Shown here piece after piece: positions 1,423 to 29,090 of a stretch of DNA of 64,000 nucleotides. A program made the translations under genes and the position numbers. The stretch is taken from positions 1-64,000 of the forward strand of contig JAOQAI010000007.1 in the NCBI GenBank assembly GCA_025963645.1, written 5' to 3'. The stretch's first letter is position 1. Each line of letters opens with the position of its first letter. Source of the DNA: Flaviaestuariibacter sp. (lineage in GTDB: Bacteria; Bacteroidota; Bacteroidia; Chitinophagales; Chitinophagaceae). The notes beneath the pieces were generated by a model that had not been told where the DNA came from, searched no databases, and saw only the letters and a program-made list of their open reading frames with translations.

Positions 1423-1872
1423 TATTAGTATTCAGATTATGGAAAAGATGAAAAAGTAATTTGTAAAACATCAGTTTTAGATCAAAGCACAATACTCAAT
1501 GCTCCTGCTCTATAACATTCTATATTTTGTACTTCGTATAAAACTTAGCCCCAAAGGTGTTAGGCAAACATTACGCAGTTTAGGTAGTCTATTTAATCTT
1601 AAGTACTTATCACTTATTGAAAATTCAAGATTTGGCTACAATGGGCATCGCCCTCATCCCAAACTGATTCCACTTTAGAATTTATAGATCTCAAAATCTT
1701 CTTCAATATCAAAGAACAGTATATCCATAAAAACAGGTATTAGTACGTATTTCGAATTTGAAATACATAATCTATTTTTAAGCTTTAAAGCTAGTCAATG
1801 TAATCATGCCTAACGTTCTACTGAACGCTCAAATTGCTGGAAGTAATATATTGAACTTTTCAACGAAATAGT
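1423..1872. other. 450-bp AT-rich intergenic region
   Basis: No convincing reading frame or RNA gene is seen. It holds motif copy 1 at 1731-1753 and a small inverted repeat, CGTTC-TACT-GAACG, at 1814-1827, about 45 bp before the 1873 gene. Both are candidate control sites for that gene. Confidence 0.5.
1731..1753 (+). promoter_or_regulatory. Element-wide repeat motif, copy 1
   Basis: The sequence AAACAGGTATTAGTACG is the first of seven copies of a shared motif with a GTAYTARTAC core (here 1737-1746). It lies 127 bp before the ATG of the 1873 gene, which is followed by a metallopeptidase-like gene. A binding site for a LuxR/NarL-type regulator is inferred. Confidence 0.55.
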
Positions 1873-2328
1873 ATGCATAATACAGAAGCTGATTTGCCTT
1901 CGAGTTCGGAACTTTTCAAAATGACTGGTGTCTATCGTGGAACTATAAATGACATTTATGGTAGGAAAGGTTCCATTGAGTTTGAAATATCTGGTACTGA
2001 TAAAAACTTGGAGGCAGGTCTCGAACTTGTTTTACAGGATGAAGAGGTTCCTGTAATTCTGAGAACTAAACCAGAAGGAGCTTTAAAATTTAGTTTGAAC
2101 AACGATAAGGCGGCTCGGATTAGATGCGAACTAGAGCATATTCCTCCTCCTAGGGAAAATGAGGAGGAATATGAGTGGTTACCGCTTGTCCTTGGAGGCG
2201 AGTTCGACATAACGATACAGGACGCCACTCCTTACGCTTTAGGCGTTGTATTTGGATCTATCCAAATAAGCGGTGATCCTGGTCTTGGTGCCGGTATTTT
2301 TATCGCGTGGTTATTTGATGAAAATTAA
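1873..2328 (+). CDS. Hypothetical protein, partner of metallopeptidase-like gene
   Basis: A 151-residue protein, not recognised. The sequence is rich in alternating hydrophobic and acidic residues, which suggests a beta-rich fold, with a Pro/Glu linker near residues 94-101. The C-terminus is glycine-rich and hydrophobic (GDPGLGAGIFIAWLF) and could insert in or touch a membrane. There is no signal peptide. It ends 11 bp before the HExxH protein gene, so the two are almost certainly co-transcribed and may act together. A copy of the element-wide motif lies upstream. Substrate or inhibitor of the neighbouring peptidase are both possible roles, but nothing in the sequence decides this. Confidence 0.65.
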   Translation: MHNTEADLPSSSELFKMTGVYRGTINDIYGRKGSIEFEISGTDKNLEAGLELVLQDEEVPVILRTKPEGALKFSLNNDKAARIRCELEHIPPPRENEEEYEWLPLVLGGEFDITIQDATPYALGVVFGSIQISGDPGLGAGIFIAWLFDEN

Positions 2329-2339
2329 AAAGCTTAAGA

Positions 2340-2885
2340 ATGCCAGTTTTTGATAAGTGTACTAAGACACAAATAGATCAGTTAACTAGTGCTTTTAATG
2401 CCTTAATTGATAGACCTGCTTTAACACAATTTGATAATTTGCGTGAATCAATCCGAGACAGATGGAACACTCGTAAGTTTGTTTGCGGTGCAGGTACCGG
2501 CGAGTGCAGCGGCCTAGATGGGGCGCAGAATAGTGAGCGCATTCTTATCTGCACTTTTGATACAAGACGGCTTGCAGCAGTCCTTCTGCATGAACTAGTA
2601 CATGATTGTGGAGGTTCTGAACTGGATTCAGAGGCAATAGAATACACTTGTTATGTTGGTAATGGCTCTCAACCACCAAATGGGGATGACTGGTATAAAT
2701 TCTGTAAACACACTAAAGAGTTCGAAGGCAATAAACACATAAGAGTTGCAAAATTCGTTATTTGGAATTCAACTACTGGAGATGTTTGGGTACGTAATAA
2801 CAATGGAGGAAAGCCGGAAAAGGGCACTCTTATAATCGACAAGTCAAGGTTTTTTATAGTTCCTTCCAGTCAAAAATGTTCTTGA
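2340..2885 (+). CDS. Putative zinc metallopeptidase (HExxH)
   Basis: A 181-residue protein with the zinc-peptidase signature HELVH at residues 84-88, followed by CGGSELDSEAIEY, where a Glu or Asp could be the third zinc ligand as in gluzincins or aspzincins. Several Cys residues flank the site. No signal peptide is visible, so it either acts inside the cell or leaves by another route. It follows the 1873 gene by 11 bp. The exact peptidase family is not recognised; SprT-like and M35-like proteins share similar spacing. The catalytic assignment rests on the single motif. Confidence 0.6.
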   Translation: MPVFDKCTKTQIDQLTSAFNALIDRPALTQFDNLRESIRDRWNTRKFVCGAGTGECSGLDGAQNSERILICTFDTRRLAAVLLHELVHDCGGSELDSEAIEYTCYVGNGSQPPNGDDWYKFCKHTKEFEGNKHIRVAKFVIWNSTTGDVWVRNNNGGKPEKGTLIIDKSRFFIVPSSQKCS

Positions 2886-3188
2886 TCTGTTAGATCGGCT
2901 ACAGTAAAGATCTATTTCTAATTCGCGTTGTTCAGTACTTAGTAGATGTTCTAAAATTTCTTTAAGAGGGGATAACTTTATTTTTTAAAGTTGGTTTATC
3001 AGTTCCCATTTTTGCATTATTCAATCTAATTTCCTGTGGGCACCTCTGCAGCGATAGCAAACTCCAGATAACTCTATTTATATATATCCGTTACCCAAAA
3101 TTTCTCTTTCAAGACTAGTATCTATTGGGTATAATGAGTGACATTTGTTTTCGAAAGGTTCGAAACGAAGTATTACTAACTGTTAAGT
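2886..3188. other. 303-bp intergenic region
   Basis: No gene is seen. A short inverted repeat around TTCGAAAGGTTCGAA lies about 30 bp before the ATG of the AAA ATPase gene and could be an operator. Confidence 0.4.
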
Positions 3189-5585
3189 ATGATTCAGAAA
3201 ATTGTCAGTCTAACTTCGGTGGGCAAGTTCAAAGCTTACCAGGCTAGTGGAGATGTGTGCTTTAAGAAACTAACTGCTATTTATGCCGACAATGGTAGTG
3301 GTAAAACTACTTTGGCCGCTATATTCAGGTCGCTTACAACCGGAAATGTAGATTCCATAAAGAAGCGCAAATCTATTGGCGCTACTTTGCCGCAAGCTGC
3401 ACAAATAATCGAGCAGATTAATGGCGGTACTGCTTACCACACACTTCGGGCTGCTGGATGGTCTGTCGTATTGCCCGGAATTGAAGTGTTCGATATTCAT
3501 TTCATTAATTCCAATGTTTTTTCCGGGTGTGATTTTACAGATGACCAGAAGAAACAGCTGTACCAGTTTGTAATCGGTGCTCAAGGTGTGGCTATTCAAC
3601 AGCAGATAGAGCAAAACAAAACTAATAAAGCGGCGTCTAGGCAGAAATTAGATGCTTTGGAGCAGCAGCTTATTCATGCCGTCGGCTGTGGTTTGGTAAA
3701 AGACAAACTAGCTCGGTTTTATTCAATTCGGTCCGTCGCTTCGGATATCGATGCGCAAATTGCTGTGGCAGAAGCGGCCTTGGTTAGCGCAAATGCAAGT
3801 TCAACTATCCAACGGTTACCCAGCTTAATGCCTCTTTTGCCGTTACCTGCACCTTTGGATTTTCGGCTAGTCACCGCAGACTTGGCGGCTACTACCAAAA
3901 CAATTCAAGATCAAGCTTTACAGACACTTTTCGAAGTCCATTGTAAAGATTTAAATGATAATTCAATAACAGCACCTGAGCCTTGGTTGAAGGCAGGTTT
4001 CCTCTATTATGAGACAATAAGAGAGGGTGCAAGTGAAGAGGTGCCTATGAACCTTCATTGCCCATTTTGCAAGCAGCAGGTTGGAGACAGTTTGGAAGTT
4101 ATAAAAGCATACGCTTCAAAATTCAATGATGATTTTAATAGTTTGGTCCAACGGTTGAGCGACTATTGGAGTATCCTTAATAATTTTAAGTTTGATGCGC
4201 TTATTCAGCAGCTGAGAGGAATTGTAGATAATAACATTACCATCATAGGCTCATGGGCAGCGCATTTGCCTATCACTACCATTCCGCCAGTAATTGCTGT
4301 TTCTCCTGACGCACTTTTGGCGAATGAAAACATTGGCCTTAGCCTAAAAGCAATCGAGCAGAAGATTGGCAACCCGTCTCTTCCTGTTGGGTTTGAATGC
4401 TTTAGTACCTTACAGAACTGCATTGATAAGATCAATGTAGGAGTAGTGGTTTATAATCGTTTAGTTACTGACTACAATTCAGCAATCCAAGCTTTCAAAG
4501 CTGGGATTAAACCTGTAGCCGAAGCGCAAGAGGCTGTAAACCGGTTGAAGCGATCGCAAAAGCGGTTCCAAGCTAATATCGATGCCCTGTGCAGACAAAT
4601 TGCAAGTGAGAAACTTCAATTAAAGAGACTTGAAGATGCGTATCCAATCTTAGTACAACAACAAGAAGCCGCTGCCTCAGCATTTTTTACCTTATATCGT
4701 GATCGTATTAATCACTACCTCGGTACTGTTTTTCAAACACCCTTTCAGATCGACAATGTTAGGCATGTAGCTCCCCAAGGTCGCGCTACTCAAAGCCGCA
4801 TGGCTTATGAGTTGACTATTAACGGTCAGCCGATTTCATTTGATAATACTCAAAATCATAATACGAAGGACTGTTTGAGTGAGGGTGACAAGAGCACTCT
4901 TGCATTCGCTTTCTTCCTTGCAAAGCTTGATGTAGATCCTAATAAGTCGGATAAGATACTTGTATTCGATGACCCGCTTTCAAGCTTTGATCGAAACAGG
5001 CGTTTGATGACGGTGCAGACATTGCGCAATCTTTTGGATGATGTGAAGCAAGTTATAGTGCTTAGTCACAACGAACATTTTTTGCATGCTTTGTTGAGTA
5101 GTGTGGAAAGGAGCGGCAGGAAAGAATTAGGTATCGTACAAAATGCTCTTACTCAGGAATCAACAATTACGGAAATCTCTATTGAGAAAATGGTTGAGCA
5201 TGACTATTTCAAGCATGTGAATGAGTTGGAAGAGTTTTTACGAAGTGCCGATCTAACTAAGAAAGAGATTGTTCTCGGTCTTATGCGCAATGTCCTTGAG
5301 TCACATTTAAGATTTAAGTTCTACCGTCAACTTCCTAGAGACCAAAACACATTGGGTACTCTTATTTCCACACTTGATACTAGTGGCGTACCATTTCGAG
5401 ATAATGCAAATAGGGCAGACATAATTAGGAGACTAAGGTTAATCAACGGAATATCCTGCAAGCCTCATCATGGTGAGCCGACACCTGACTATAACCTGCT
5501 TGGGATGGACCCCCAGAGTATAACTGCCACAGAACTTGCCCAGGAAGTGCAAGCAACACTTCAATTGATTGACAGTCGGCTTTAA
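3189..5585 (+). CDS. AAA_13-family ATPase, PrrC/RloC-like
   Basis: A 798-residue ABC-type (SMC/Rad50-like) ATPase. Walker A is ADNGSGKTT at about residues 34-42, the ABC signature LSEGDKST at about 563-570 and Walker B LVFDDPLSSFD at about 591-601, so the head domain is split by a helical insert. The insert holds HCPFCKQQ near 291, like the zinc-hook or CxxC loops of this family. The C-terminal 130 residues contain RNVLESH near 700, which fits the Arg-x3-Glu spacing of the PrrC/RloC anticodon nuclease, and end with a helical segment holding two His. Such proteins cut tRNA or block phage growth when DNA integrity is disturbed. A defence or element-stability role is inferred. No hsd genes are adjacent, so it resembles stand-alone RloC more than PrrC. 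Confidence 0.75.
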   Translation: MIQKIVSLTSVGKFKAYQASGDVCFKKLTAIYADNGSGKTTLAAIFRSLTTGNVDSIKKRKSIGATLPQAAQIIEQINGGTAYHTLRAAGWSVVLPGIEVFDIHFINSNVFSGCDFTDDQKKQLYQFVIGAQGVAIQQQIEQNKTNKAASRQKLDALEQQLIHAVGCGLVKDKLARFYSIRSVASDIDAQIAVAEAALVSANASSTIQRLPSLMPLLPLPAPLDFRLVTADLAATTKTIQDQALQTLFEVHCKDLNDNSITAPEPWLKAGFLYYETIREGASEEVPMNLHCPFCKQQVGDSLEVIKAYASKFNDDFNSLVQRLSDYWSILNNFKFDALIQQLRGIVDNNITIIGSWAAHLPITTIPPVIAVSPDALLANENIGLSLKAIEQKIGNPSLPVGFECFSTLQNCIDKINVGVVVYNRLVTDYNSAIQAFKAGIKPVAEAQEAVNRLKRSQKRFQANIDALCRQIASEKLQLKRLEDAYPILVQQQEAAASAFFTLYRDRINHYLGTVFQTPFQIDNVRHVAPQGRATQSRMAYELTINGQPISFDNTQNHNTKDCLSEGDKSTLAFAFFLAKLDVDPNKSDKILVFDDPLSSFDRNRRLMTVQTLRNLLDDVKQVIVLSHNEHFLHALLSSVERSGRKELGIVQNALTQESTITEISIEKMVEHDYFKHVNELEEFLRSADLTKKEIVLGLMRNVLESHLRFKFYRQLPRDQNTLGTLISTLDTSGVPFRDNANRADIIRRLRLINGISCKPHHGEPTPDYNLLGMDPQSITATELAQEVQATLQLIDSRL

Positions 5586-5751
5586 TTTTGGCTTTTCTTC
5601 CTGATTTGTTTGTTTACCCATTCCGCTATTGCGCTCCAATAGGTTGGATAGATTTCTTTTGGTAATATCTGGAAGAGAAAACTAAGCCTGAAAAGATTTT
5701 CAAGACTTGGTATTGCTGACCCTTTTTCTGCGAATGAGAAATTCGGTCGGT

Positions 5752-5809
5752 CTTTAAGCGTAAGGTCTCTCTACTTTTAAAATTCTTATGGTATATTTTT
5801 AGTCCTTTT
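5752..5809 (+). promoter_or_regulatory. Probable ECF-type promoter, copy 1
   Basis: This 58-bp block begins CTTTAAGCGTAA and ends TTTTTAGTCCTTTT. It matches, in 53 of 58 positions, the reverse complement of 8442-8499, the block upstream of the ECF sigma gene. Both copies point at their downstream gene. The best explanation is a promoter read by the element's own ECF sigma factor. It drives the 70-residue protein gene at 5918 through a leader that holds a conserved hairpin. Confidence 0.65.
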
Positions 5810-5821
5810 TTATGTTAGGAA

Positions 5822-5857
5822 GCACAACGAAGTCCTGCCTGTAAAGCTCTGTTGTGC
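5822..5857 (+). repeat. Hairpin with CTGCCTG loop, copy 1
   Basis: Arms GCACAAC (5822-5828) and GTTGTGC (5851-5857) enclose a loop with CTGCCTG. A near-identical hairpin lies on the minus strand at 8622-8663. Here it falls in the expected 5' leader of the 70-residue protein gene. Function unknown; a leader structure, a protein-binding site or a small repeat element are possible. Confidence 0.5.
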
Positions 5858-5917
5858 GTCCATCTCCCGTGATTTCGGCTCAAGTTTTGTGAGTTTAAAG
5901 AAAAAGGGAGGTAATAT

Positions 5918-6130
5918 ATGGGAAAGTTTAAAGATTCCGACCTTCAGGAATATCAAAAAGAAAACGAAGGCAGCGCCGATTCCAGTAGTAAAATTGCAGC
6001 GGCTGGGCACCAGGCTAGAGATGACATGCAGGAAGATGGAGGGATGCCAGAACGGCAAGAAACAAAAATCGACGCAGGGTATGAAAAACTTGCTGATGAT
6101 GCCGTTAAAGGGGGCAACTCAAGCAAATAG
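5918..6130 (+). CDS. Small hydrophilic protein, probable ECF sigma target
   Basis: A 70-residue, highly charged protein with many Glu, Asp, Lys, Ser and Gly residues, no Cys, no hydrophobic core and no signal peptide; probably disordered or helical in solution. A purine-rich GGGAGG sits just before the ATG, an unusually good ribosome-binding site for this phylum, which decides the start. The upstream block at 5752-5809 is shared with the ECF sigma gene, so it is likely part of that sigma factor's regulon. Small acidic stress-type proteins are common in this group, but no family is recognised. Confidence 0.7.
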   Translation: MGKFKDSDLQEYQKENEGSADSSSKIAAAGHQARDDMQEDGGMPERQETKIDAGYEKLADDAVKGGNSSK

Positions 6131-6175
6131 CTATTTAAGTATAGGGATGTATACTCCCTATACTTTTTATTCGTT

Positions 6176-6490: not shown

Positions 6491-6491
6491 A

Positions 6492-6740: not shown

Positions 6741-7066
6741 TTCCAGAAGCAATCACTCCTATACATTTCTAATGCTTTTGAAGCTTTATTCACCTTTAAA
6801 GAATTTGCTACTTCTGGATGATTCAAAATCTTGTCTCTGAGGGGCACTATAGAGACAAAGTATTGATGGCCGCTGTGCCTTGCAAACAAAACAGGTACTA
6901 ATACTGATTGTCTTTCTCAAATAGCAATTATACCTTTCTTCTCTAAACTAGCGTCATGAGGATAAGGGGCTATAACTTCCTTACTGCACTTCTATAATCC
7001 GTTGCTTAATCGATAATTAAGTTTTGAAATGTGAAGTTTTTTACTACCTAAGTCAATCAATTAATT
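6741..7066. other. 326-bp intergenic region
   Basis: No supported gene. It contains copy 2 of the element-wide motif at 6888-6910. A minus-strand frame at 6680-6889 is possible but was not accepted. Confidence 0.4.
6888..6910 (+). promoter_or_regulatory. Element-wide repeat motif, copy 2
   Basis: AAAACAGGTACTAATACTG, with core GTACTAATAC at 6895-6904, 163 bp before the ATG at 7067. It has the same orientation as copies 1, 3, 5 and 7. Confidence 0.55.
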
Positions 7067-7405
7067 ATGCTACACCTACTTGAGAAAATGAAACGTAGCG
7101 TATTGGCTTCAAATGAAGTTAAACACGATAAACACCAGGATATTCTAAGCGACTACCAACATTTTGTTGATAGTATAGTCAAGGCTTACAAAAGCCGTTT
7201 TGAAGAGCTTGAAAAAGATGATAGGCAAGAGTTGTTTAAAGAATATTTTAAAGTGTTTTATGATGAAGCGGCAGGAGAAGCCCAACGTATTGATCGCTTC
7301 TATATCGCTCATGGTCGAGATGATAGCAAGCTACGCAATGACATGCAGAAAATCTGTGAACAGGGACTTGCAGATTTCCATGCATTGACGATGCAATGCG
7401 TCTAA
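7067..7405 (+). CDS. Hypothetical protein, helical and charged
   Basis: A 112-residue soluble protein, rich in Lys, Asp, Glu and aromatic residues, predicted almost fully helical. No signal, membrane segment or known motif. A second ATG at 7088 (M-K-R-S-V-L) is an alternative start. It is convergent with the ArsR-type regulator gene, leaving only three bases between the two stops. Motif copy 2 lies upstream. Function unknown. Confidence 0.6.
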   Translation: MLHLLEKMKRSVLASNEVKHDKHQDILSDYQHFVDSIVKAYKSRFEELEKDDRQELFKEYFKVFYDEAAGEAQRIDRFYIAHGRDDSKLRNDMQKICEQGLADFHALTMQCV

Positions 7406-7408
7406 GCC

Positions 7409-7729
7409 TTATTTACCATTTATAGCCGCACATAACTCCTGCACATCATTCACCCGCTCATAATTAATCGCGTAGTAGATGCATTTACCTTCACGTGTCG
7501 TACTAACTAAGCCTGCTTTGCGTAGAATAGCTAAATGCTGGGAGGCAACGGACTGTTCTAGGCGAAGCTTCACGTAAATATCGGTCACAGTAATGCCTTT
7601 ACGCTTATGCAAAAGTTGCATGATCTGCTGGCGCAACTTGTGGTTTATGGCTCTTAGTATCAGTGCACTTTTCTTTAAATTAAGTATCTCGATGCGCAGT
7701 TCGTCCTGTGTAGCTGAATTGGTTGTCAT
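7409..7729 (-). CDS. ArsR-type winged-helix regulator
   Basis: A 106-residue DNA-binding regulator. Residues 28-95 carry the ArsR-type winged helix, with NHKLRQQIMQLLHKRKG, then the recognition helix SVASQHLAILRKAGLV and the wing REGKCIYYAI. The CxC metal-binding site of ArsR/SmtB proteins in the alpha-3 helix (ELCVCD) is absent, so it probably senses something other than a metal. It is encoded 76 bp after the ECF sigma gene on the same strand and may be co-transcribed with it. Target genes are not evident. Confidence 0.8.
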   Translation of the reverse strand: MTTNSATQDELRIEILNLKKSALILRAINHKLRQQIMQLLHKRKGITVTDIYVKLRLEQSVASQHLAILRKAGLVSTTREGKCIYYAINYERVNDVQELCAAINGK

Positions 7730-7804
7730 CCCGTTAAGGTAATCAAATAATATTTTCCGATTATGTAAAAAACGGCTTTTTCTTCCAACAAATCATTGAG
7801 TGTT

Positions 7805-8398
7805 TCAATTAAGCGTCGAGTTTCCGTTTTCCATGCAATACAGCAGGACAGTGATGTAGGGGAACTGTTTTTTGAGAATTTGAATAGCTCTTGCCCGCTG
7901 GCTTTTAACGGTGCTGATGGAAATCTTTAAGTCACGGGCGATCTCTTTAATACTTTTCCCCTCTATATAAATGAGCTCGAATATCACCCTTGCCTTGGGT
8001 GGCAACACTTTTCGGCTATCAAGAAGGTTGCGAAGAAGTTCCGCCTCAATCATCCTATGAAGTGTTGTCTGCTCCAACAAGTTCAATTCTTGCGGAAAGC
8101 CCATGGCATGCTTGGCTACCACTTTTCGCTTGCGCAACGCATTTATGCAAGCATTTTTTACGGTGGTGTAAAGAAAAGCTTTGATACTCCCAGGCTTTTC
8201 CAATGCCTCACGGTGGTTCCAGAGTTTGATAAATGCCTCTGTTGCTACATCTTCCGCCTCCAATGTGTCCCCTAGGATGGTGTAAGCAAAATAGGCAAGG
8301 GGCTTGTAATGCGCGTGAAAGAAGAAGTCTAGGGCACCCTGCTCTCCTTTTTGCATTCGTCGAAATCTCTGGGCCTCTATAGGTATAATTGCAATCAC
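7805..8398 (-). CDS. ECF-type RNA polymerase sigma factor
   Basis: A 197-residue sigma-70-family protein of the type abundant in Bacteroidota. Region 2 is residues 20-90, with HYKPLAYFAYTILGD, AEDVATEAFIKLW and FLYTTVKNACINALRKRK. Region 4 is 120-180, with LPPKARVIFELIYIEGKSIKEIA and STVKSQRARAIQILK. No anti-sigma gene or SusC/D pair follows. Upstream on the same strand, 8442-8499 repeats a block also found before the 70-residue protein gene, which points to autoregulation. Likely role: switching on a small set of element genes. Confidence 0.85.
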   Translation of the reverse strand: MIAIIPIEAQRFRRMQKGEQGALDFFFHAHYKPLAYFAYTILGDTLEAEDVATEAFIKLWNHREALEKPGSIKAFLYTTVKNACINALRKRKVVAKHAMGFPQELNLLEQTTLHRMIEAELLRNLLDSRKVLPPKARVIFELIYIEGKSIKEIARDLKISISTVKSQRARAIQILKKQFPYITVLLYCMENGNSTLN

Positions 8399-8663: not shown

Positions 8664-8671
8664 ATAAATTT

Positions 8672-9151
8672 CTACCCCACAACATTGACACTAAACTCAT
8701 TTAAAAGAGGTGAATCAAATCCATAAGCCAGGTAGTTGCCACCAGTCCCATCTGGTATTGCTTTAATTGCTGGTGCCGGTGGTGTAGCAGCTCTGGCGAA
8801 ACTGAGCATCATCGTGTTCGAAGGCATAGCGTTTAAAATGATTGTTTCCTGTTGTTTTCCTAATACAACTGCATTTACCAACCCATCGGCGTTTGCTACA
8901 GTATTCCAATAGAAGCCAGGATTGGTCATTGATGCTAGTATCGCCTTAGCTTGAAGTTGCCCATCATACTCATAATTGCTGACAACAAAAATTTCGCTGT
9001 CCGAGATAAGTGTTAGTAACCCAAAATGAGTGCCCGGAGAGCCTTTGATGCCAATCAAAAGATTACCTGCCTGAAATGTTAGCATTGCAGCATTACTGAT
9101 TATCTGAAGTATGTTAGTACTGTCCTGTTCGTGCGAGGAGTCTTGGTTCAT
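8672..9151 (-). CDS. Hypothetical protein divergent from serine protease
   Basis: A 159-residue protein, not recognised. It has a hydrophobic mid-section with beta-rich stretches (FGLLTLISDSEIFVVSNY), a Pro/Ala-rich hinge (ATPPAPAIKAIPDGTGG) and no signal peptide. It is divergent from the V8-like protease gene at 9376, and copy 3 of the element-wide motif lies in the shared 225-bp gap, 60 bp from this start. The pair may be co-regulated in both directions. Function unknown. Confidence 0.6.
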   Translation of the reverse strand: MNQDSSHEQDSTNILQIISNAAMLTFQAGNLLIGIKGSPGTHFGLLTLISDSEIFVVSNYEYDGQLQAKAILASMTNPGFYWNTVANADGLVNAVVLGKQQETIILNAMPSNTMMLSFARAATPPAPAIKAIPDGTGGNYLAYGFDSPLLNEFSVNVVG

Positions 9152-9204: not shown

Positions 9205-9228
9205 ACAACGGGTATTAGTACGTATTGT
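9205..9228 (+). promoter_or_regulatory. Element-wide repeat motif, copy 3
   Basis: ACAACGGGTATTAGTACG with core GTATTAGTAC at 9212-9221. It sits between divergent genes and could control both the 8672-9151 gene and the protease gene at 9376. Confidence 0.55.
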
Positions 9229-9375
9229 CTAGCAATTATTGTAGAGATAGCTTTGGTGATACTTCATTCCACTAGCAACTAAATCAAATATTGCTACTTG
9301 ACATCGAGGTTGAAATAAAATTCACCGGTATGCCGAAAACGGTATCAAAGAGTAGGCGCAATCAAAACTAGAAAA

Positions 9376-10317
9376 ATGAGCAAGGACAAAAGCTGGCTAG
9401 AACAAGTAAAAGGCTTGCCACCGCATGCCTCTTACACACATCAAACAGGGCAAAGTGAAAAAGACATTAACGATTATTGGACAAATGAAAAAATGGAAGC
9501 ATCTCTTCCTATTCCTAAGCCTCGCTTAAAGTGGGATCCAAATAACCAGATTAGTCAATTAACACCAGATGGTATGCCGATAGGACAACCTTTCACGGTT
9601 CACCCTAATTCTCCCATGAATCTACAACAGACGGGATCAGTAGTGAGTAATCCAGGAGGTTGGCCTTTTTCTGCTGTTGGGAAAATGTTCATGACTATTA
9701 ATGGACAAAATTTTTCCGGTACTGTTTTTTCGGTAAGCGGGGCGAAGAATGTATTCATGACTGCTGGACATTGTGTCTATGACCAAGCCTCACAACAATG
9801 GGCAACTAACGTGCTGGTCTGCCTTTCTTATAGCCCGACGTATCCAGGAGCGCAGTTCGCAGCAACTAATTTGATTACCACCTGTGGCTGGATTAATAGT
9901 GCAGGCTACCAGTATGATATTGGTGGAGGCATTGTTAATGGCGACATGTTTACCGGGAGAGGCAACTTTGGGATATTATTTAATCAAGGAGCTAATACGG
10001 GACCTTGGAGTGCGGTAGGCTACCCTGCCAATGCTCCATATCCTGGTAATACAATGTATCAGAGTGTAGGCTCGTACATAGGTGGTGATCCGAATCAACC
10101 CGGAACTATTGGAATGAACAATAATGATATGGGCGGGGGAGCAAGCGGGGGACCATGGATAGTAAACTCAAATTGGGGGTATGTAAATGGTCACCAGTCA
10201 TATGATTATGATAATCCGGATACTGATGAATATTCGCCTTATTACGGGGTGGCGGCATATAATGTATGGGTCTGTGGAGTTTCAGGGGGACAACAGTGCG
10301 GAGGATGCCAAGTGTAA
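9376..10317 (+). CDS. Trypsin-fold serine protease, V8-like
   Basis: A 313-residue chymotrypsin-fold (S1/S1B-type) protease. The catalytic His is in TAGHC near residue 132, the Asp is probably in YDIGGG near 181, and the nucleophile Ser is in GGASGGPW near 257. Residues 1-95 form a hydrophilic, Pro-rich prosegment. No N-terminal signal peptide is present, which is odd for a family that is usually secreted; it may act in the cytoplasm or leave with another system. A terminator follows at 10352. The Gly/Asn/Tyr-rich composition is unlike its neighbours. Motif copy 3 lies 155 bp upstream. Confidence 0.8.
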   Translation: MSKDKSWLEQVKGLPPHASYTHQTGQSEKDINDYWTNEKMEASLPIPKPRLKWDPNNQISQLTPDGMPIGQPFTVHPNSPMNLQQTGSVVSNPGGWPFSAVGKMFMTINGQNFSGTVFSVSGAKNVFMTAGHCVYDQASQQWATNVLVCLSYSPTYPGAQFAATNLITTCGWINSAGYQYDIGGGIVNGDMFTGRGNFGILFNQGANTGPWSAVGYPANAPYPGNTMYQSVGSYIGGDPNQPGTIGMNNNDMGGGASGGPWIVNSNWGYVNGHQSYDYDNPDTDEYSPYYGVAAYNVWVCGVSGGQQCGGCQV

Positions 10318-10578: not shown

Positions 10579-10884
10579 TTAATCAGTGGCTACTGTGTGA
10601 TAATACTTCGGTGCATTAACAATTTTTGCCCGCATGTGGCGCCTCTTATTTATTGTAAAAGAGACCTTCTGTACTAACTCTTTATACAATTCTTCAGGAG
10701 CGATATTGTAAAGGCAGCCTAGCTTGAATAAATTGTTTATACTCGGCGCTGCTAATCCTTTTTCCCAGAGTGAAATTCTGTCCTCACTTTTAAAACCTAA
10801 AATGAGTGCAACGTCCTTCTGCCGAAGTTGCATTGCTTTTCGATACCTTCTTAAATTGTTTGGAAGTTCAGTATAGAGTTCCAT
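10579..10884 (-). CDS. XRE-family regulator (Cro/CI-type HTH)
   Basis: A 101-residue DNA-binding protein. The helix-turn-helix spans about residues 9-65: NLRRYRKAMQLRQKDVALILG, then SEDRISLWEKGLAAPSINNLFKLGCLY. The short C-terminal tail is basic. A 12-bp palindrome, ATTACTAGTAAT, lies about 50 bp upstream and is a candidate autoregulatory operator. It stands alone between the protease gene and a recombinase remnant. Regulators of this kind often control excision or transfer of mobile elements. Confidence 0.8.
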   Translation of the reverse strand: MELYTELPNNLRRYRKAMQLRQKDVALILGFKSEDRISLWEKGLAAPSINNLFKLGCLYNIAPEELYKELVQKVSFTINKRRHMRAKIVNAPKYYHTVATD

Positions 10885-10935
10885 ATTGATATTGTTACAA
10901 GGAAACTACTTATCTAATAGAGTAGGTAATTTGCC

Positions 10936-14467: not shown

Positions 14468-14581
14468 GGCCTCATAGTATCATAAAAGCTTTGGGCTGTT
14501 AATATGATAATTATGAAATATTGATAGTGGAAAATGTAGAGTAGGAAAGTTGCCATAGATAGATATTTCTTATCTTAGATA

Positions 14582-16428: not shown

Positions 16429-16526
16429 AAATACTTTTAATTATTGTTGGCGCTAATATATGGCCTGCTTCTATTGGCTTCAAAGTTTCATTTTAGAAAT
16501 AGCCATTTCCATCCATTTTCCTACTC

Positions 16527-16543
16527 TATCCTAGTACAGGATA
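16527..16543. promoter_or_regulatory. Inverted repeat upstream of translocase-methylase operon
   Basis: TATCCT-AGTAC-AGGATA, perfect 6-bp arms, 20 bp before the ATG at 16563. Its position fits an operator over the promoter. The nearby XRE regulator (18666-19055) is one candidate binder. Confidence 0.4.
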
Positions 16544-20605: not shown

Positions 20606-20628
20606 CGGATCGTATTAATACCTGTTGG
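20606..20628 (-). promoter_or_regulatory. Element-wide repeat motif, copy 4
   Basis: Read on the minus strand: CCAACAGGTATTAATACG, core GTATTAATAC at 20612-20621, 41 bp before the ATG at 20662. Orientation is opposite to most copies, which is allowed by the palindromic core. Confidence 0.55.
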
Positions 20629-20661: not shown

Positions 20662-21132
20662 ATGCAAGTCTCTTGTGAGAATCTTACTGAGCTCATAACT
20701 ACAAAAGATGGAATTACGTTTCAGCTAAGTTCCAATCATATTTATGTGTATTTACCTGATAATGAATTGTTGATATTTCAATTCCGAAAATCAAACGGAC
20801 AACCCTATTTCGAAATTCCTTGGAGGGAAGACCTGAGCATGTTGGTAAAGCTAATAAAGCAGAGACAATTCCAAAATTCAGGAGATGAAGTATATATAAA
20901 AACGTTATTAAAAACCCACAAGGAAGACTTTCATTGTTATGTACCTTTTGATATGGACAGATGGCTAGCTTTTGCTCAGTTTGAGGTATATAAGAATATT
21001 AAGAAAGCCATTGGAAAAACGCTGCTCAAAGAGCAGTTTTTTTATTTACAGTTCTTAAGCTTTTTGCCTCTGATCTCTTCAGAAATCGATATAGCAACAA
21101 AAATCTCTCTTATAGATATCACATGGCATTAA
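20662..21132 (+). CDS. Hypothetical protein with internal terminator-like hairpin
   Basis: A 156-residue protein, not recognised; hydrophobic, with many aromatic residues, no signal peptide. The DNA inside its last quarter (21022-21043) makes a textbook terminator, CTGCTC-AAA-GAGCAG followed by seven T. Transcription that is not coupled to translation could stop there. The true stop at 21132 is followed at once by motif copy 5. Confidence 0.5.
   Translation: MQVSCENLTELITTKDGITFQLSSNHIYVYLPDNELLIFQFRKSNGQPYFEIPWREDLSMLVKLIKQRQFQNSGDEVYIKTLLKTHKEDFHCYVPFDMDRWLAFAQFEVYKNIKKAIGKTLLKEQFFYLQFLSFLPLISSEIDIATKISLIDITWH
21022..21043 (+). terminator. Terminator-like hairpin inside coding sequence
   Basis: Perfect 6-bp stem CTGCTC/GAGCAG, AAA loop, T7 run. 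It falls about 90 bases before the stop codon of the 20662 gene. It may act as a translation-coupled attenuator. Confidence 0.5.
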
Positions 21133-21133: not shown

Positions 21134-21163
21134 ATAAAAACAGGTACTAATACCTGTTTTTAT
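21134..21163 (+). promoter_or_regulatory. Element-wide repeat motif, copy 5, also a perfect hairpin
   Basis: Arms ATAAAAACAGGTA and TACCTGTTTTTAT meet over CTAA, perfect over 13 bp. The left part is the shared motif AACAGGTACTAATAC (core 21144-21153). It lies 128 bp before the HTH gene at 21281 that opens the peptide cluster, and could also end transcription of the 20662 gene. Confidence 0.6.
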
Positions 21164-21280
21164 TGATCAGCTCTTAGTCTATTTTGCTAATTCAAATCGC
21201 AAATAAAAATGTACTACGGTGCAACACAAGTGATGCACTCGTAGGGAGATTTTTAATAATCAATTAGCAATGTAGTTTAT

Positions 21281-21535
21281 ATGCCAAAACATTATTTTAA
21301 CCGCTTGGAACGCTTGGATTATTTAATTCGTGTTAAAGGAACTGGTGCGCCTAAGGCCTTGGCAGATAAAATAGGTGTAAGTGAACGAACTTTATACGAT
21401 TATATAGAAATTTTGAAATCACTTGGCGCATCTATTTCATACTGTCGTTGTCGTGAATCATATTATTACGAAACAATAGGATATTTTAACTTTCACTTTG
21501 TTACTGACACTTCATATCTAGAAGCATCTAATTAA
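21281..21535 (+). CDS. Small HTH protein (DeoR/HTH_11 type)
   Basis: An 84-residue DNA-binding protein. YFNRLERLDYLIRVKGTG is followed by the helix-turn-helix KALADKIGVSERTLYDYIEILKSLGA, close to the HTH_11 class. The tail holds Cys-Arg-Cys and Tyr residues and no ligand domain. It is first in line before the GLPGLI, peptide, DUF4221, thioredoxin and barrel genes and is probably their local regulator. It may be truncated compared with full DeoR proteins, but single-domain forms occur in Bacteroidota. Confidence 0.7.
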   Translation: MPKHYFNRLERLDYLIRVKGTGAPKALADKIGVSERTLYDYIEILKSLGASISYCRCRESYYYETIGYFNFHFVTDTSYLEASN

Positions 21536-22654: not shown

Positions 22655-22688
22655 ATGGGGTTACAAAGTTTTTTGTAACCCCATTTTG
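22655..22688 (+). terminator. Leaky terminator or attenuator after the peptide gene
   Basis: ATGGGGTTACAAA pairs perfectly with TTTGTAACCCCAT over GTTT, followed by TTTTG. It begins nine bases after the peptide stop and lies within the operon. It probably limits transcription of the DUF4221 gene at 22718. Confidence 0.75.
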
Positions 22689-22717
22689 TAATTGCCATCT
22701 TTCAAACCTTCAGTTTT

Positions 22718-23944: not shown

Positions 23945-23953
23945 AAATCAAAC

Positions 23954-24448: not shown

Positions 24449-24521
24449 ATCGTTGTAGCTCTTTTCGCTTATTCACTAAGGCCACTATGAAACTTAGAAT
24501 ACACCTTTTAAAGATTGCTTC

Positions 24522-27260
24522 ATGAGACCGGTGCTATTCATATTCGCTGTACTATTGGGCTCTAATGCATTTAGTCAAACTACGCAAGTAAAAGGGTCTG
24601 TATTAGATTCCTTTAATAATGTAGCTTTAGAAAATGCCACGATTAAAATAATTCGATCTAAGGATTCTATTCTGATCGATTTCGCGAGGACGAACAAAAC
24701 TGGATATTTTGAGTTGATGATACCAAAGTCTGAGAAGTTTATTCTCATTTGTAGCTATCCAGGATTTGTAGATTATATCGAACAGAATCCTGAAAGTATT
24801 ACTGCTGAAGGAAAGATCTCTAAAGTTTATATGACTCCTCAACGCCTCGTGCTTCAAGAAGTTGTAGTTCGGCAGCAAATAGGAGCAATTAGAATGAGGG
24901 GTGATACGACAGAATACAAAGTTGATAGTTTTAAACTTAGTCGAGATGCAACGGTAGAAGAAATGCTTCGTGTTTTGCCTGGGATTCAAGTTGATAGTAA
25001 AGGTGTCATAAGTGTTCAAGGTAGAAGAGTAAAACAAGTTCTTGTGGATGGCGAAGAGTTTTTTAGCGAAGATCCTACATTAGTAACTCAAAATTTTAAG
25101 GCTGCATCGATTGATAAGGTACAAGTGTTCGATAAGAAAAGTGATCAAGCTGCTTTTACAGGTATAGATGATGGCAAAAGGTCTAAGACAATAAACTTAA
25201 AACTTAAGGAAACAGCTAAACAAGGGCACTTTGGAAATAGCCAAATAGGAGTAGGTAATGAAAGCTTTTATGATGGACGTTTATTTTTCAGCAAGTTTAG
25301 AAAGAAAGAAAAATTTGCAGTTTACTCCATTTATTCAAATACTGGTACTGCGGGTTTGTCGGAAAATGAAGAGGATACATATGGTGATAATACGGGATTA
25401 GGTTTCAGCAGTTTTTATCATCAGTTAGATGATTGGTCTGGTGTTTATGGGGGGCAAGGGATACCTTATTTAAAAACTATAGGGTTGCACTATGACAATA
25501 AATGGGAAAGCCCTTTTAAAGGGTTAAACTCAAACTTGAAATATTATCAGTTGAATGTGAAAGAGAGGGATACATTAGATATCAATTATAATCTTCCAGG
25601 CAAAACATTATTAAGTAGAGTATTTCAGGACAAAGACTATAAACTCGAACGCAAGAAAGTAAATTCTGTTATCGATGTTCAATTAGATTCTACTTCAACA
25701 TTAAAGATTTCTTTATATGGGGAGGACATTCATAAGACAACCTTATTGAGAGAAGCTTCACAGTTGTCAGAGTCTGGCGACAAAATGCTTAATATTAGCA
25801 ATCGACACCTTTCTACTGATGGTTCTACTACAACGTTAAGCGGATCGGCATTATGGCGGAAGCGTTTTCAAAAAAAGGGACGTACTGTATCATTAAATTT
25901 TTTATGGAATCGTTTTAGTAATGATGGAGAAGGCTATATAAATTCGGAAATCAAGTTTTATAACGGAATGTCTACTCCTCAGACTATTCAAAGCGTAGAT
26001 CAGCTAAAGACAAATGAGTTTATTAATCGAAGTATAAATGTGAAGGCGATATATACTGAACCTCTTCTGCCTAAAACATCGCTTATTATTAATGGAGGGT
26101 TTCAAAAGGATGATGCGACTGCACAAAGGCTTTCTTTTGATAGAAGTTCGACCAATAAATATGATTTATTAGATAGCTTTTATAGTAACGAGTATACTTT
26201 TAAAGTCACTTCCGGTCTTGGTGGCTTGCAATTGGTTCGAAGTGAGAAGAAAAGATCCGTTAGTGTTGGTAGTGATATAGCTATTACTAAATTTGATCAA
26301 CTTGATATTGGGAAAGCAGAAAACACAAATCGAAATTTTGTTAACTGGTATCCTAAGGCTAGTTTAAACTTGGTTCCAAACCCTAATAATTCAATAGTCC
26401 TAAGTTATACTGGTGCCACTATCCAACCACTTTTACATCAAATACAGCCATTATATAATAATATCGATCCCTTAAATATTGTTGTCGGTAACCCTAGTTT
26501 AAAGCCGACCTTTAATAGCACGTTTCGTATTATGTATATTAAATTTCAACCATTAAAGCAAAAGAGCTTGTGGGCTGACTTGTCATACTTGATACCAAAT
26601 CAAGGGATAAGTACAAATGAGTCAATTGATGCTTCAGGCAAAAGACAGATTCAATTTATTAACGTCAACGGTAATCGAGTTTTTAAAGCCTTAGTAAATT
26701 ACAACTTTCAAATAAAAGAGCCCAAAGTAGGTGTTGGTGTAAATACGACTGTAAACAATGCTGTGTTTCAGAGTATAATCAATAACGAAGAAGTTACTAC
26801 TCGAAATAATCAGTATCAAATATCAGTAGGGCTCAGTAAGTCGAAGCCAAACAAATGGGAATTTAATATCTCTAACTCTATTTCTTATAATCGTAATGCC
26901 AGTAATTTGAAATCTACAAAGGTTATAGATTATTGGCTGTATAGTGTGCAGCCATTACTTGAGGTACATGCAACAAAAAAAATGCGGATACATACAGATG
27001 GGTACTTGATGTTTCGTAGTAGTGTCCCAGGCTTTACTCAAGATAGATCCTTATTATTATGGAATGCTTGGATCGATCAGAAAATTATAGTTGATAAACT
27101 ATCTATACGTGGAAGTGTCAACGATATTTTGAACAATAATAATGGGCTTACAAGATTGTTAGGTAATTCTTACGTTATACAGTCAAAATTTAATACAATT
27201 AGACGATATTTCATGATTACTGCTTACCTGAAAATTAATCATACCCGTAACTTGAAATAA
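24522..27260 (+). CDS. TonB-dependent-type outer-membrane barrel protein
   Basis: A 912-residue protein with signal peptide LFIFAVLLGSNAFSQ, a carboxypeptidase-regulatory-like beta-sandwich (about 23-110, VKGSVLDSFNNVALENATI) and a plug-like segment (RVLPGIQVDSKGVISVQGR near 149-167) followed by a long barrel of the OMP_b-brl_3 type, ending in an aromatic-rich C-terminal strand. This arrangement is typical of TonB-linked receptors or exporters. In this cluster it may take up or release the peptide. A second, smaller reading frame inside (minus strand) is a shadow. Confidence 0.8.
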   Translation: MRPVLFIFAVLLGSNAFSQTTQVKGSVLDSFNNVALENATIKIIRSKDSILIDFARTNKTGYFELMIPKSEKFILICSYPGFVDYIEQNPESITAEGKISKVYMTPQRLVLQEVVVRQQIGAIRMRGDTTEYKVDSFKLSRDATVEEMLRVLPGIQVDSKGVISVQGRRVKQVLVDGEEFFSEDPTLVTQNFKAASIDKVQVFDKKSDQAAFTGIDDGKRSKTINLKLKETAKQGHFGNSQIGVGNESFYDGRLFFSKFRKKEKFAVYSIYSNTGTAGLSENEEDTYGDNTGLGFSSFYHQLDDWSGVYGGQGIPYLKTIGLHYDNKWESPFKGLNSNLKYYQLNVKERDTLDINYNLPGKTLLSRVFQDKDYKLERKKVNSVIDVQLDSTSTLKISLYGEDIHKTTLLREASQLSESGDKMLNISNRHLSTDGSTTTLSGSALWRKRFQKKGRTVSLNFLWNRFSNDGEGYINSEIKFYNGMSTPQTIQSVDQLKTNEFINRSINVKAIYTEPLLPKTSLIINGGFQKDDATAQRLSFDRSSTNKYDLLDSFYSNEYTFKVTSGLGGLQLVRSEKKRSVSVGSDIAITKFDQLDIGKAENTNRNFVNWYPKASLNLVPNPNNSIVLSYTGATIQPLLHQIQPLYNNIDPLNIVVGNPSLKPTFNSTFRIMYIKFQPLKQKSLWADLSYLIPNQGISTNESIDASGKRQIQFINVNGNRVFKALVNYNFQIKEPKVGVGVNTTVNNAVFQSIINNEEVTTRNNQYQISVGLSKSKPNKWEFNISNSISYNRNASNLKSTKVIDYWLYSVQPLLEVHATKKMRIHTDGYLMFRSSVPGFTQDRSLLLWNAWIDQKIIVDKLSIRGSVNDILNNNNGLTRLLGNSYVIQSKFNTIRRYFMITAYLKINHTRNLK

Positions 27261-27464
27261 CTCTAAGATAAGGGCTTACAACCTCACCGGCGACGCGTTT
27301 TCATCATAATGAAATGTCTAATCTCTCACAGCTTCGGGTTCTCATTAATTACATTCCAGATTAATGATTCAACTGATAAAATGATTGATTGTCACGTTTT
27401 TAGTAGGATCTATAGACAGTAAATTTAAAATTTGTCTCGTAAAGTCGATTCATTTAGGGTCTTC

Positions 27465-27485
27465 CGCGTATTAATACCTATTTTA
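27465..27485 (-). promoter_or_regulatory. Element-wide repeat motif, copy 6
   Basis: On the minus strand: AAATAGGTATTAATACG, core GTATTAATAC at 27468-27477. It lies 43 bp before the response regulator start, where an autoregulatory site would be expected. Confidence 0.6.
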
Positions 27486-27519
27486 TTTTCAAGAAATATT
27501 CAGTAGTTAGCGCTTTATT

Positions 27520-28191
27520 ATGCAAGAGAACTCGTCTGCTACAGTAGTGCCAATTAATATTATGGTTGTGGATGACCATGCCCTCTTTCGGGACGGTGTA
27601 AAACTGATGTTTGCAAAGCTTAAGCATCTAGGATTCAATATTGTAAATGAAGCTTCAAATGGTGTTGAAGCTATTAGGATTTTAGAAGAGGAGCAACCTG
27701 ATGTTATTTTAATGGATGTGCAGATGCCTGAGCTCAATGGCATAGGTGCCACCAATTTAATTTCGAAAAAGTACCCACATATTCCCATCATAGCTCTTTC
27801 GTCTTCTGATGATCTGTTTTATATCGAGGACATGATTAAAGCTGGTGCAAAGGGCTACACACTAAAAAATACAAACAAGGAAGAAATGGTAGCTGCTATT
27901 GAAGCCGTTTGTGCAGGCGGTACCTTTTATTCTCCGCTCATAGCGTCAAAGCTAGAAGCATCCGCTCATGAAAGGCAGGCTACACTTCATATCCCACCTC
28001 TTACCGAGAGAGAAAAAGAAGTAGTTGTGCTGCTATGCCAAGGGAAAAGTAATAAGGAAATTGCAAAAGCGCTTTTCATAAGTAAACGAACAGTTGAAGG
28101 TCATCGGAGTAATATCACACTTAAGTTAAGGTTACACCATCCTACAGATATTATGGCATACGCACTTAAGCATGGGATGTATAAGTTATAA
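27520..28191 (+). CDS. NarL/FixJ-type response regulator (LuxR HTH)
   Basis: A 223-residue two-domain regulator. The receiver has VVDDHALFRDG near residue 11, phospho-acceptor Asp in ILMDVQMP near residue 66, Ser/Thr switch in ALSSSDD and Lys in AKGYTLKNTN. The LuxR-type HTH is near 155-220: LTEREKEVVVLLCQGKSNKEIAKALFISKRTVEGHRSNI, in shortened form LTEREKEVVVLLCQGKS and KRTVEGHRSNI. No sensor kinase is in the window. Motif copy 6 stands directly upstream, so it may bind this motif element-wide. It is a strong candidate master regulator of the element. Confidence 0.85.
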   Translation: MQENSSATVVPINIMVVDDHALFRDGVKLMFAKLKHLGFNIVNEASNGVEAIRILEEEQPDVILMDVQMPELNGIGATNLISKKYPHIPIIALSSSDDLFYIEDMIKAGAKGYTLKNTNKEEMVAAIEAVCAGGTFYSPLIASKLEASAHERQATLHIPPLTEREKEVVVLLCQGKSNKEIAKALFISKRTVEGHRSNITLKLRLHHPTDIMAYALKHGMYKL

Positions 28192-28342
28192 AAAATGCCA
28201 GAAGCAAGTATCAGATTTAAACTTCAATAATTTGCTAAGCGGGGATATAGTGTGGAGTATCTATCTTTAAATTTTGAGCATCGTAGATGCTGCTTCTATA
28301 TAGTTTTCTGTTTGCTATGCTCCAGTGTAATCAATTTAAGTT

Positions 28343-29065
28343 ATGGCTACTAAACAAGAAAGGGTAAAGGCTCTATGGGAAGTTACTTTAAAAACATACA
28401 CTGAAGTATTTGCTTTCAATAAGATAACTACAGCTGCCTACAAGACACATTATCAAAGACAGTTTAGAAAGGATGAAAGAGAGGAGGTCTCTAATTATCA
28501 TCATTTTGTTGCAGAAAAGGCAAAGACATTAAAATTGCCGCCTATTGTTCATAAGACCTCTATCATATACGGCGTTTCCGCTTTTGAGGTGTTCTTTAAA
28601 AAGTTTCTAATTATTCTTTATCAGAGTGAGCCACGCGCACTAAAGAATAGTTCTCGAACATTGACATACGAGGAGATATTAAATTGCTCTACTATGAAGT
28701 CGTTGCAGTCAAAGATGATAGCGACAATTTTACATGACTTCTTTTATAAATCAATTGCAGAACAGATTGACCTCGTAACTAAAAAATTTGGATTTAAGTT
28801 TAAGTTCAACGCTGAAAAATCCACAATTTTCGATACGAATATTAACATTGAAAGACTAACGGAAATATTCTCTTTGAGAAATATCATCTTGCATAATGAT
28901 AGTGAGATCAATGAAATTTTTGTTGAAAAGAATCCGACTTCTAAATATAAGCTTGGAGACAAGTTGGTATTTCAAGCAGAGGATACTCTTGAGTTGCTTT
29001 ATTACCTCTTACAAATTGTTACCAAATTGTCCTACCAAGTTTTAGGTGAGAAAAAGAAAAAGTAG
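28343..29065 (+). CDS. HEPN-type protein (RN-x3-H motif)
   Basis: A 240-residue soluble protein. The C-terminal half holds LRNIILHND near residues 178-186, an R-N-x3-H motif that matches the active-site Rx4-6H of HEPN ribonucleases, the kind found in the RiboL-PSP-HEPN / MAE_28990-like group. Upstream, the protein is helical and charged. No nucleotidyltransferase (MNT) partner is adjacent, so it is not a standard toxin-antitoxin pair. It could act as an RNase that guards the element or cell. The preceding gap of 151 bp holds no recognised motif. Confidence 0.6.
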   Translation: MATKQERVKALWEVTLKTYTEVFAFNKITTAAYKTHYQRQFRKDEREEVSNYHHFVAEKAKTLKLPPIVHKTSIIYGVSAFEVFFKKFLIILYQSEPRALKNSSRTLTYEEILNCSTMKSLQSKMIATILHDFFYKSIAEQIDLVTKKFGFKFKFNAEKSTIFDTNINIERLTEIFSLRNIILHNDSEINEIFVEKNPTSKYKLGDKLVFQAEDTLELLYYLLQIVTKLSYQVLGEKKKK

Positions 29066-29090
29066 GAAAAACAGGTACAAATACGGATTG
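29066..29090 (+). promoter_or_regulatory. Element-wide repeat motif, copy 7
   Basis: GAAAAACAGGTACAAATACG; core GTACAAATAC (29075-29084), one base off the consensus core. It lies 61 bp before the ATG at 29145, the first gene of the translocase operon. Confidence 0.55.

What the first reader, a model, noticed from the sequence alone, without database searches (positions are those of the whole stretch)
1731..29090. Seven-copy motif linking element genes into one regulon
The pattern AACAGGTAYTARTACGNATT, with palindromic core GTAYTARTAC, occurs at 1731, 6888, 9205, 20606(-), 21134, 27465(-) and 29066. All copies lie in gaps, 41-163 bp before genes: a metallopeptidase pair, a hypothetical gene, divergent protease genes, two hypothetical gene groups, the LuxR-type response regulator and the large translocase operon. 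None was found by eye in the chromosomal part. The response regulator has a copy 43 bp from its own start, so it could be the binder and control cargo and transfer together. This is not a known box of this group to my knowledge.
Basis: partly seen in the sequence, partly recalled or inferred. Interest (0 to 1): 0.75.

Follow-up and report, generated by a model that had tools for sequence, protein, structure and literature searches.

The report
Mobile island's response-regulator promoter box
A mobile DNA island in a bacterium carries seven copies of a short mirror-image DNA signal, most of them at one fixed distance from a promoter-like sequence, so one switch protein on the island probably turns on its cargo genes and part of its transfer machinery together.

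Summary
Seven copies of a 20-bp near-palindrome (AACAGGTA-YTAR-TACnnnTT) lie in gaps of the island and nowhere else in the window; six lie within 3 mismatches of the printed pattern (shuffles 0.02), and a seed-free repeat scan recovers all seven. New evidence shows what they are. Read toward the downstream gene, six of seven have TA of a Bacteroidota -7 box (TAnnTTTG) at exactly base 42 from the motif start; the seventh at 43 (0 of 5000 random sets). The motif centre is then near -43.5, where activators sit. Of 13 off-island exact cores only two have TAnnTT at base 42: one within 4 kb of the only close paralog of the island's LuxR-type response regulator, before an astacin-like gene; one before a GMC oxidoreductase operon. 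A third such site lies between that paralog and lodAB. In other genomes GTA-N4-TAC palindromes sit at -55 to -90 of LuxR-regulator operons (12 of 43, against 5 of 145 other operons). Corrections: the box class is family-wide, and only the second translocase operon has the box; SerRec1, XRE and perhaps the first translocase have another motif.

The parts
1732..1751 (+). box 1, AACAGGTATTAGTACGTATT; before 1873-2885
1773..1780 (+). -7-like box TATTTTTA, starts at base 42 from box start
1873..2328 (+). hypothetical 151 aa, first gene after box 1
   Evidence: no Pfam family
2340..2885 (+). HELVH-motif protein (metallopeptidase by eye only)
   Evidence: no Pfam or NCBIfam family
6890..6909 (+). box 2, AACAGGTACTAATACTGATT; before 7067-7405
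6931..6938 (+). -7-like box TACCTTTC
9207..9226 (+). box 3, AACGGGTATTAGTACGTATT; between divergent 8672-9151(-) and 9376-10317(+)
   Evidence: minus-strand reading has TCTATTTG (5 of 6) at base 42
9248..9255 (+). -7 box TAGCTTTG, perfect TAnnTTTG
9376..10317 (+). trypsin-like protein by eye (TAGHC, GASGGP)
   Evidence: no Pfam or NCBIfam family
20607..20626 (+). box 4, GGATCGTATTAATACCTGTT; before 20662-21132
   Evidence: TACTTTTA starts at base 43, not 42; predicted leader of only 2 nt
21139..21158 (+). box 5, perfect 20-bp palindrome AACAGGTACTAATACCTGTT; before HTH84 and the GLPGLI/DUF4221/outer-membrane genes
21180..21187 (+). -7-like box TATTTTGC
27463..27482 (+). box 6, TCCGCGTATTAATACCTATT; before the response regulator
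   Evidence: weakest -7-like box (TAGTTAGC, 3 of 6)
27520..28191 (+). orphan LuxR/NarL-type response regulator, proposed binder
   Evidence: Response_reg + GerE; acceptor Asp 66 in DVQMP
29070..29089 (+). box 7, AACAGGTACAAATACGGATT; before the 29145-32634 operon
29111..29118 (+). -7-like box TAATTTCC
29145..29615 (+). small conserved partner of the translocase
   Evidence: homologs in 59 of the fetched translocase loci
29617..32634 (+). TraG/TraD-like DNA translocase ATPase
   Evidence: TrwB_AAD_bind, TraG-D_C
32750..34237 (+). large serine recombinase (Ccr-like) at island edge
   Evidence: CcrB 138 bits, below its cut-off of 900
34224..35288 (-). comM/Mg-chelatase-like gene, cut short at the island boundary
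   Evidence: Mg_chelatase 251 bits, profile positions 1-158 of 207

Best explanation
The seven copies are operators of a LuxR/NarL-type response regulator, most likely the island's own orphan regulator (27520-28191), possibly shared with its chromosomal paralog. A phosphorylated dimer would bind the 20-bp dyad (half-site TACnnnTT) centred near -43.5, touching the -33 region, and recruit sigma-A RNA polymerase to the -7 box that starts at base 42 from the motif start (class II activation). This would switch on together the metallopeptidase-like pair, a hypothetical gene, the protease-like gene (perhaps with its divergent neighbour), two hypothetical/outer-membrane groups and the small-protein/translocase operon, plus the regulator itself. 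Shown: motif, copy number, location, fixed spacing, closeness to the paralog, association with LuxR-regulator operons in other genomes. Inferred: binding, phosphorylation, activation rather than repression, autoregulation.
For: Copy number and position. -7 box at base 42: mean score 4.43 of 6 against a null best-of-40-offsets of 2.72 (sd 0.23, 0 of 5000 reach it); TA at base 42 in 6 of 7, TAnnTT in 5 of 7. Core + 26 N + TAnnTT has five exact hits in 64 kb, all boxes, expected 0.12. The TAnnTTTG consensus and its -12 to -5 position are from PMC9723704 (two passages). The closest paralog of the regulator (C1:88001-88666, 50%) has TACAGGTGTTAATACGCATT 129 bp past its end, before lodA-lodB (NCBIfam LodA 1206 bits, LodB 503), and further on the same side a core before an astacin-like gene. 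With C1:159052 all three have TAnnTT at base 42 (3 of 3, P about 0.01). As an unselected check, of all 13 off-island exact cores, read both ways (26 readings), only C1:159057 and C1:84364 have TAnnTT at base 42, each toward its gene; the other 11 have none. Only two off-island places reach <=2 mismatches; one beside the paralog by chance is about 0.001 (my estimate, post hoc). Upstream of 43 LuxR-regulator operons (40 in other genomes, 3 in this one; island regulator and its close paralog not counted) GTA-N4-TAC at -55 to -90 ranks first of 832 palindrome designs (12 of 43), against 5 of 145 other operon starts (Fisher 1.4e-5); with a looser operon rule 13 of 43 against 2 of 73 (3.7e-5). In 10 of 14 four-gene cassettes it starts at -65 to -78. 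Over 13 such sites the -7 box scores best at base 41 (mean 4.0, next 2.85).
Against: No binding or expression data. No relative of this regulator at E<=1e-50 was found in 146 other family genomes (at most 20 candidates scored per genome), yet the box class occurs in 31 other genomes of the family, so other proteins must bind such boxes. In 42 more distant regulator loci with about 1.5-kb flanks, plus one viral contig, the motif was not enriched: exact core 2 places against 2, one mismatch 22 against 37, 20-mer at <=4 mismatches 4 against 9; many operon starts lay outside those flanks. 31 of the 43 operons lack the palindrome. The chromosomal paralog has none in the 400 bp upstream of itself. 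The island regulator's own box is the weakest, with a predicted 4-nt leader. Of nine sites in other genomes tested for geometry, four (G171 L308 and L309, G930, G1049) score 5 or 6 of 6 at base 41 or 42 and five (G171 L306 and L371, Emticicia L053, G911, G999) score 2 or less. 67 related island loci show no excess of the box.
Confidence: 0.7

Rival explanations
1. The host's paralogous regulator at C1:88001-88666 is the main binder; the island's promoters are plugged into a host regulon (LodAB oxidase, astacin-like protease, GMC oxidoreductase operon) and the island copy only tunes it.
For: Same base-42 geometry at three host promoters; similar HTH regions.
Against: Seven boxes cluster on 34 kb of island, against two host places at <=2 mismatches (16 at <=3) in the rest of 2.57 Mb; the island carries its own copy with a box before it. 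The assembly is 63% complete, so host sites are undercounted.
Confidence: 0.15
2. Another island regulator binds: the XRE protein (10579-10884), HTH84 (21281-21535), the ArsR-like (7409-7729) or ECF sigma (7805-8398) gene.
For: The perfect palindrome is 122 bp before HTH84; small XRE proteins recur in related islands, including Emticicia, which has one box-like site before its translocase operon. Three of 16 HTH84 homolog loci have 3- or 4-mismatch matches (4 places) against 0 for the control.
Against: XRE genes in G418, G447 and G434 have another motif beside them, and the window has diverged copies of it before XRE and SerRec1. This is not complete: the G437 stretch has three XRE-like genes and no such copy at them. 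The sigma-A -7 spacing argues against an ECF -35 element. ArsR was not tested.
Confidence: 0.11
3. The boxes are repressor operators bound by the same regulator (differs from the best explanation only in sign).
For: A site centred at -43.5 could also block polymerase.
Against: Constant spacing just upstream of the -33 region is typical of activators (established knowledge).
Confidence: 0.15
4. Copies are recombination scars or repeats carried with gene cassettes, not operators.
For: They separate gene groups in an island with two serine recombinases.
Against: By eye similarity ends at about 20 bp, and what recurs beyond is the -7 box; the spacing recurs at host promoters.
Confidence: 0.03

Closest known systems
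DosR/DevR box of Mycobacterium (TTSGGGACTWWAGTCCCSAA)
   Same: 20-bp dyad with 8-base arms around a 4-base A/T-rich centre, bound by a LuxR/NarL-type response regulator
   Different: Half-site GGGAC there, AGGTA/TACCT here. That the string occurs with DosR was seen in a search listing only (PMC2275270); the rest is recalled
NreC operator GTAGGG-N4-CCCTAC of Staphylococcus
   Same: Dyad beginning GTA and ending TAC around N4, LuxR-type regulator (recalled)
   Different: Recalled only; one search listed two papers, neither holding both NreC and GTAGGG
NarL heptamer (TACYYMT)
   Same: Half-site TACCTGT of the perfect copy fits 6 of 7 positions (consensus recalled)
   Different: Arms point outward with a 4-base gap, not the 7-2-7 layout (recalled)
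SCC-type islands with Ccr serine recombinases
   Same: Large serine recombinase at the island edge beside an interrupted conserved gene
   Different: CcrB model 138 bits against cut-off 900; the interrupted gene is comM-like, and cargo and translocases differ

Membership tests
LuxR/NarL-type response regulator (proposed binder) | Receiver plus GerE/LuxR HTH domain | tested here: met
   Response_reg 96.8 bits and GerE 67.2 bits, both over cut-off
LuxR/NarL-type response regulator (proposed binder) | Phosphoacceptor Asp and conserved Lys in the receiver | tested here: met
   DDH at 18, Asp 66 in DVQMP, Lys 116
LuxR/NarL-type response regulator (proposed binder) | Binds the 20-bp box | not testable with these tools
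   needs gel shift or DAP-seq
Class II sigma-A activator site | Fixed distance to the core promoter | tested here: met
   TA at base 42 in 6 of 7; 0 of 5000 random sets reach the score
Class II sigma-A activator site | Transcription depends on the box | not testable with these tools
   needs reporters
GTA-N4-TAC operators upstream of LuxR-regulator operons in the family | Palindrome starting at -55 to -90 of the operon start | tested here: inconclusive
   12 of 43 other operons meet it; the island regulator's palindrome starts 52 bp before its annotated ATG, just outside
SCC/Ccr island | Recombinase passes a Ccr model | tested here: not met
   best 138.4 bits, cut-off 900
XRE-regulated operator (rival) | Box tracks the XRE gene in related islands | tested here: inconclusive
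   A different motif lies at XRE genes in three islands, but not in the G437 stretch, and Emticicia has both an XRE gene and one box-like site

The most novel reading that the evidence does not exclude
The island and its host share one attack programme: the same box and promoter geometry drives island proteases and a transfer ATPase, and host LodAB (a lysine oxidase that makes hydrogen peroxide), an astacin-like protease and a GMC oxidoreductase operon, so the island is mobilised when the host attacks its neighbours.
Probability: 0.2. Interest if true: 0.85.

Novelty: new variant of a known kind. Interest (0 to 1): 0.62.

Why it matters
It gives a concrete candidate operator (GTA-N4-TAC with longer arms, centred near -43.5) for a group of LuxR-type response regulators in this Bacteroidota family. 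My searches (listings only, partial library) showed no description of such a box. It makes their regulons predictable from sequence, and offers a case where one orphan regulator on a mobile island may tie cargo expression to a DNA-transfer operon and to a host regulon of secreted or oxidative enzymes.

Tried and rejected
Motif as a general feature of this island family: rejected. In 67 loci with the translocase the motif has no excess over the reversed pattern (52 against 55 hits at <=2 mismatches). The Emticicia site (L053:9359, 124 bp before the same operon) stands out by position but has no -7 box at base 41 or 42.

XRE as binder: first favoured because it is shared with Emticicia, then downgraded when another motif was found at XRE genes. 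The window copies of that motif were noticed by eye before the pattern was written, so the expectation (0.55 for 5 matches) is post hoc; the family consensus itself has only one, unrelated, 2-mismatch hit in the first 40 kb (25302).

HTH84 as binder: 16 homolog loci have nothing better than 3 mismatches.

C1:97665 core as a regulator-operon site: withdrawn, it lies inside a 215-aa gene. C21:25072 lies in a longer perfect palindrome and could be a terminator.

A palindrome-only scan missed the window boxes. The first repeat scan timed out.

Order-wide scan at <=1 mismatch: 36 of 396 genomes matched; outside this genome 42 strand hits, against about 29 for the reversed control (my count of the table); of 29 loci examined 20 lay inside genes. 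The tighter 22-base family scan separated from its control: 69 strand hits in 32 of 394 genomes against 7 (my sums of the table). Among 33 genomes that hold related islands the 20-mer at <=2 mismatches was only modestly above its control.

Viral contigs: 62 with an exact match, one place each, not pursued. Regulator in plasmids: 249 records, all below 60% identity.

Papers: eight searches; listings seen; only PMC9723704 opened, two passages.

Limits of the operon test: 40 of the 47 regulator hits outside this genome were fetched; I left out seven to fit two calls. Those searches scored at most 7 candidates per genome. One of the 43 had only 39 bp upstream. Three of the five 'other' hits (L376, L380, L390) are first genes of regulator operons under the rule. 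The -55 to -90 range was set after seeing positions.

Full report
WHAT IS THERE. The window is the start of contig C6 of a 2.57-Mb, 63%-complete assembly. Two contigs of its family have exactly the lengths of named records (a Chitinophagaceae bacterium and Lacibacter), so the family is probably Chitinophagaceae (inference). Bases 1 to about 34,240 look like an island that ends in a Ccr-like serine recombinase against a shortened comM-like gene. It carries two TraG/HerA-like translocases, a second serine recombinase, a Fic protein, an XRE, an ArsR-like, an ECF sigma, an 84-aa HTH protein and an orphan LuxR-type response regulator. Its left end is outside the contig.

THE MOTIF. Seven copies were verified; they are rare by chance, recovered without a seed and lie between genes. 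Genome-wide, <=2 mismatches to AACAGGTAYTARTACSNRTT gives five island places and two others; <=3 gives all seven and 16 others (28 strand hits against 11 reversed). The bare 10-base core is not rare genome-wide: 13 other places, no more than the reversed control.

PROMOTER GEOMETRY. Aligned toward the downstream gene, TAnnTTTG scores highest at base 42 (mean 4.43 of 6; next best 2.86). A null of random intergenic anchors, allowed the best of 40 offsets, averages 2.72 and never reaches it in 5000 draws. TA is at 42 in six of seven and TAnnTT in five; the 20607 copy has TACTTTTA at 43. Core + 26 N + TAnnTT has five exact hits in 64 kb, all at boxes, expected 0.12; with one mismatch allowed there are 11 hits against 4.9 expected, among them the other two boxes. 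In Flavobacterium the sigma-A -7 box spans -12 to -5 (PMC9723704, passages), which puts the box centre near -43.5. At 9207 the opposite direction scores 5 of 6, so the divergent gene may share the box.

WHO BINDS. This genome holds one close paralog of the regulator (C1, 50%); the paralog's next best relatives here are 41-43%. The two share HPxDIMxYAxKHG near the C terminus, not seen in the other regulators printed. Between the paralog and lodA-lodB lies TACAGGTGTTAATACGCATT; past lodB, before an astacin-like gene, lies CCCGTATTAATACGG (4 mismatches to the 20-mer but an exact core). A third host site, AACACGTATTAATACGGGTT, precedes a three-gene operon with a GMC oxidoreductase. All three have TAnnTT at base 42. 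As a check free of that choice, all 13 off-island exact cores were read both ways: only C1:84364 and C1:159057 show TAnnTT at base 42, each toward its gene, and the other 11 show none. In 43 LuxR-regulator operons (40 in other genomes, 3 here), GTA-N4-TAC at -55 to -90 is the top of 832 palindrome designs (12 of 43), against 5 of 145 other operon starts, or 13 of 43 against 2 of 73 with a looser operon rule. In 10 of 14 four-gene cassettes it lies at -65 to -78; over 13 such sites the -7 box scores best at base 41 (mean 4.0).

ALTERNATIVES. XRE: in stretches of G418, G447 and G434 a different motif (AAGRGAGGNNAATTTG with an inverted tail) repeats (9, 7 and 4 hits against 0 reversed), several copies directly beside XRE genes. 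G437 has XRE-like genes without it. The window has TAGAGTAGGnAAnTTGCC before XRE (10918) and SerRec1 (14537), exact, and a 3-mismatch copy before the first translocase (16511). HTH84: not supported. Recombination scars: not supported, because the spacing recurs at host promoters.

HOW FAR IT EXTENDS. A 22-base form occurs in 32 of 394 family genomes (69 strand hits against 7 reversed). Genes downstream include a phosphoesterase and a tail-collar operon in G171, and large predicted exported proteins and a sensor-regulator operon in G496. Of nine sites in other genomes tested, four have a good -7 box at base 41 or 42 and five do not, so not all such matches need be working promoters.

LIMITS. 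Binding, phosphorylation and activation are inferred. No sensor kinase was seen among the island proteins scanned, but not every open frame was scanned. The closeness of sites to the paralog was noticed after the fact. Distant regulator loci with short flanks showed no enrichment.

Noticed in passing
10918-10935(+), 14537-14554(+), 16511-16528(-): Second shared motif (TAGAGTAGGnAAnTTGCC) before XRE, SerRec1 and, weaker, the first translocase; a related motif recurs beside XRE genes in islands of G418, G447 and G434. Possibly the XRE regulator's operator.
   Followed up: partly
L048:9394, L049:9460, L062:9082, 9449 and 14292, L092:9429, L046:9419: Islands in several Mucilaginibacter genomes and one unnamed Bacteroidetes (L062) have GTGAAAACAC-like dyads, mostly imperfect, 74-115 bp before the same small-protein/translocase operon: same position as box 7, different sequence.
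   Followed up: partly
L374, L384, L385, L386, L391, L393, L395, L399, L401, L219: Cassette of a 115-183-aa protein, a 210-223-aa protein, a 245-260-aa probable sensor kinase and a LuxR regulator, with a GTA-N4-TAC palindrome at -65 to -78.
   Followed up: yes
L352-L356 (genome G496): AAATAGGTATWWATACCTATTT-type sites at six listed places (17 strand hits in all), several upstream of large predicted exported proteins, one 38 bp before a sensor-regulator operon.
   Followed up: partly
34224-35288: comM-like gene cut short at the island edge; the island may reduce the host's natural transformation.
   Followed up: no
47790, 47950, 60612, 60725: G/C-rich repeats (CTAAGTTCCCCCACCGGGGG) in gaps of the chromosomal part, 4 copies against 3 in shuffles.
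   Followed up: no
L057 and L065: Two copies of this translocase about 16 kb apart on one Mucilaginibacter contig, suggesting tandem islands.
   Followed up: no
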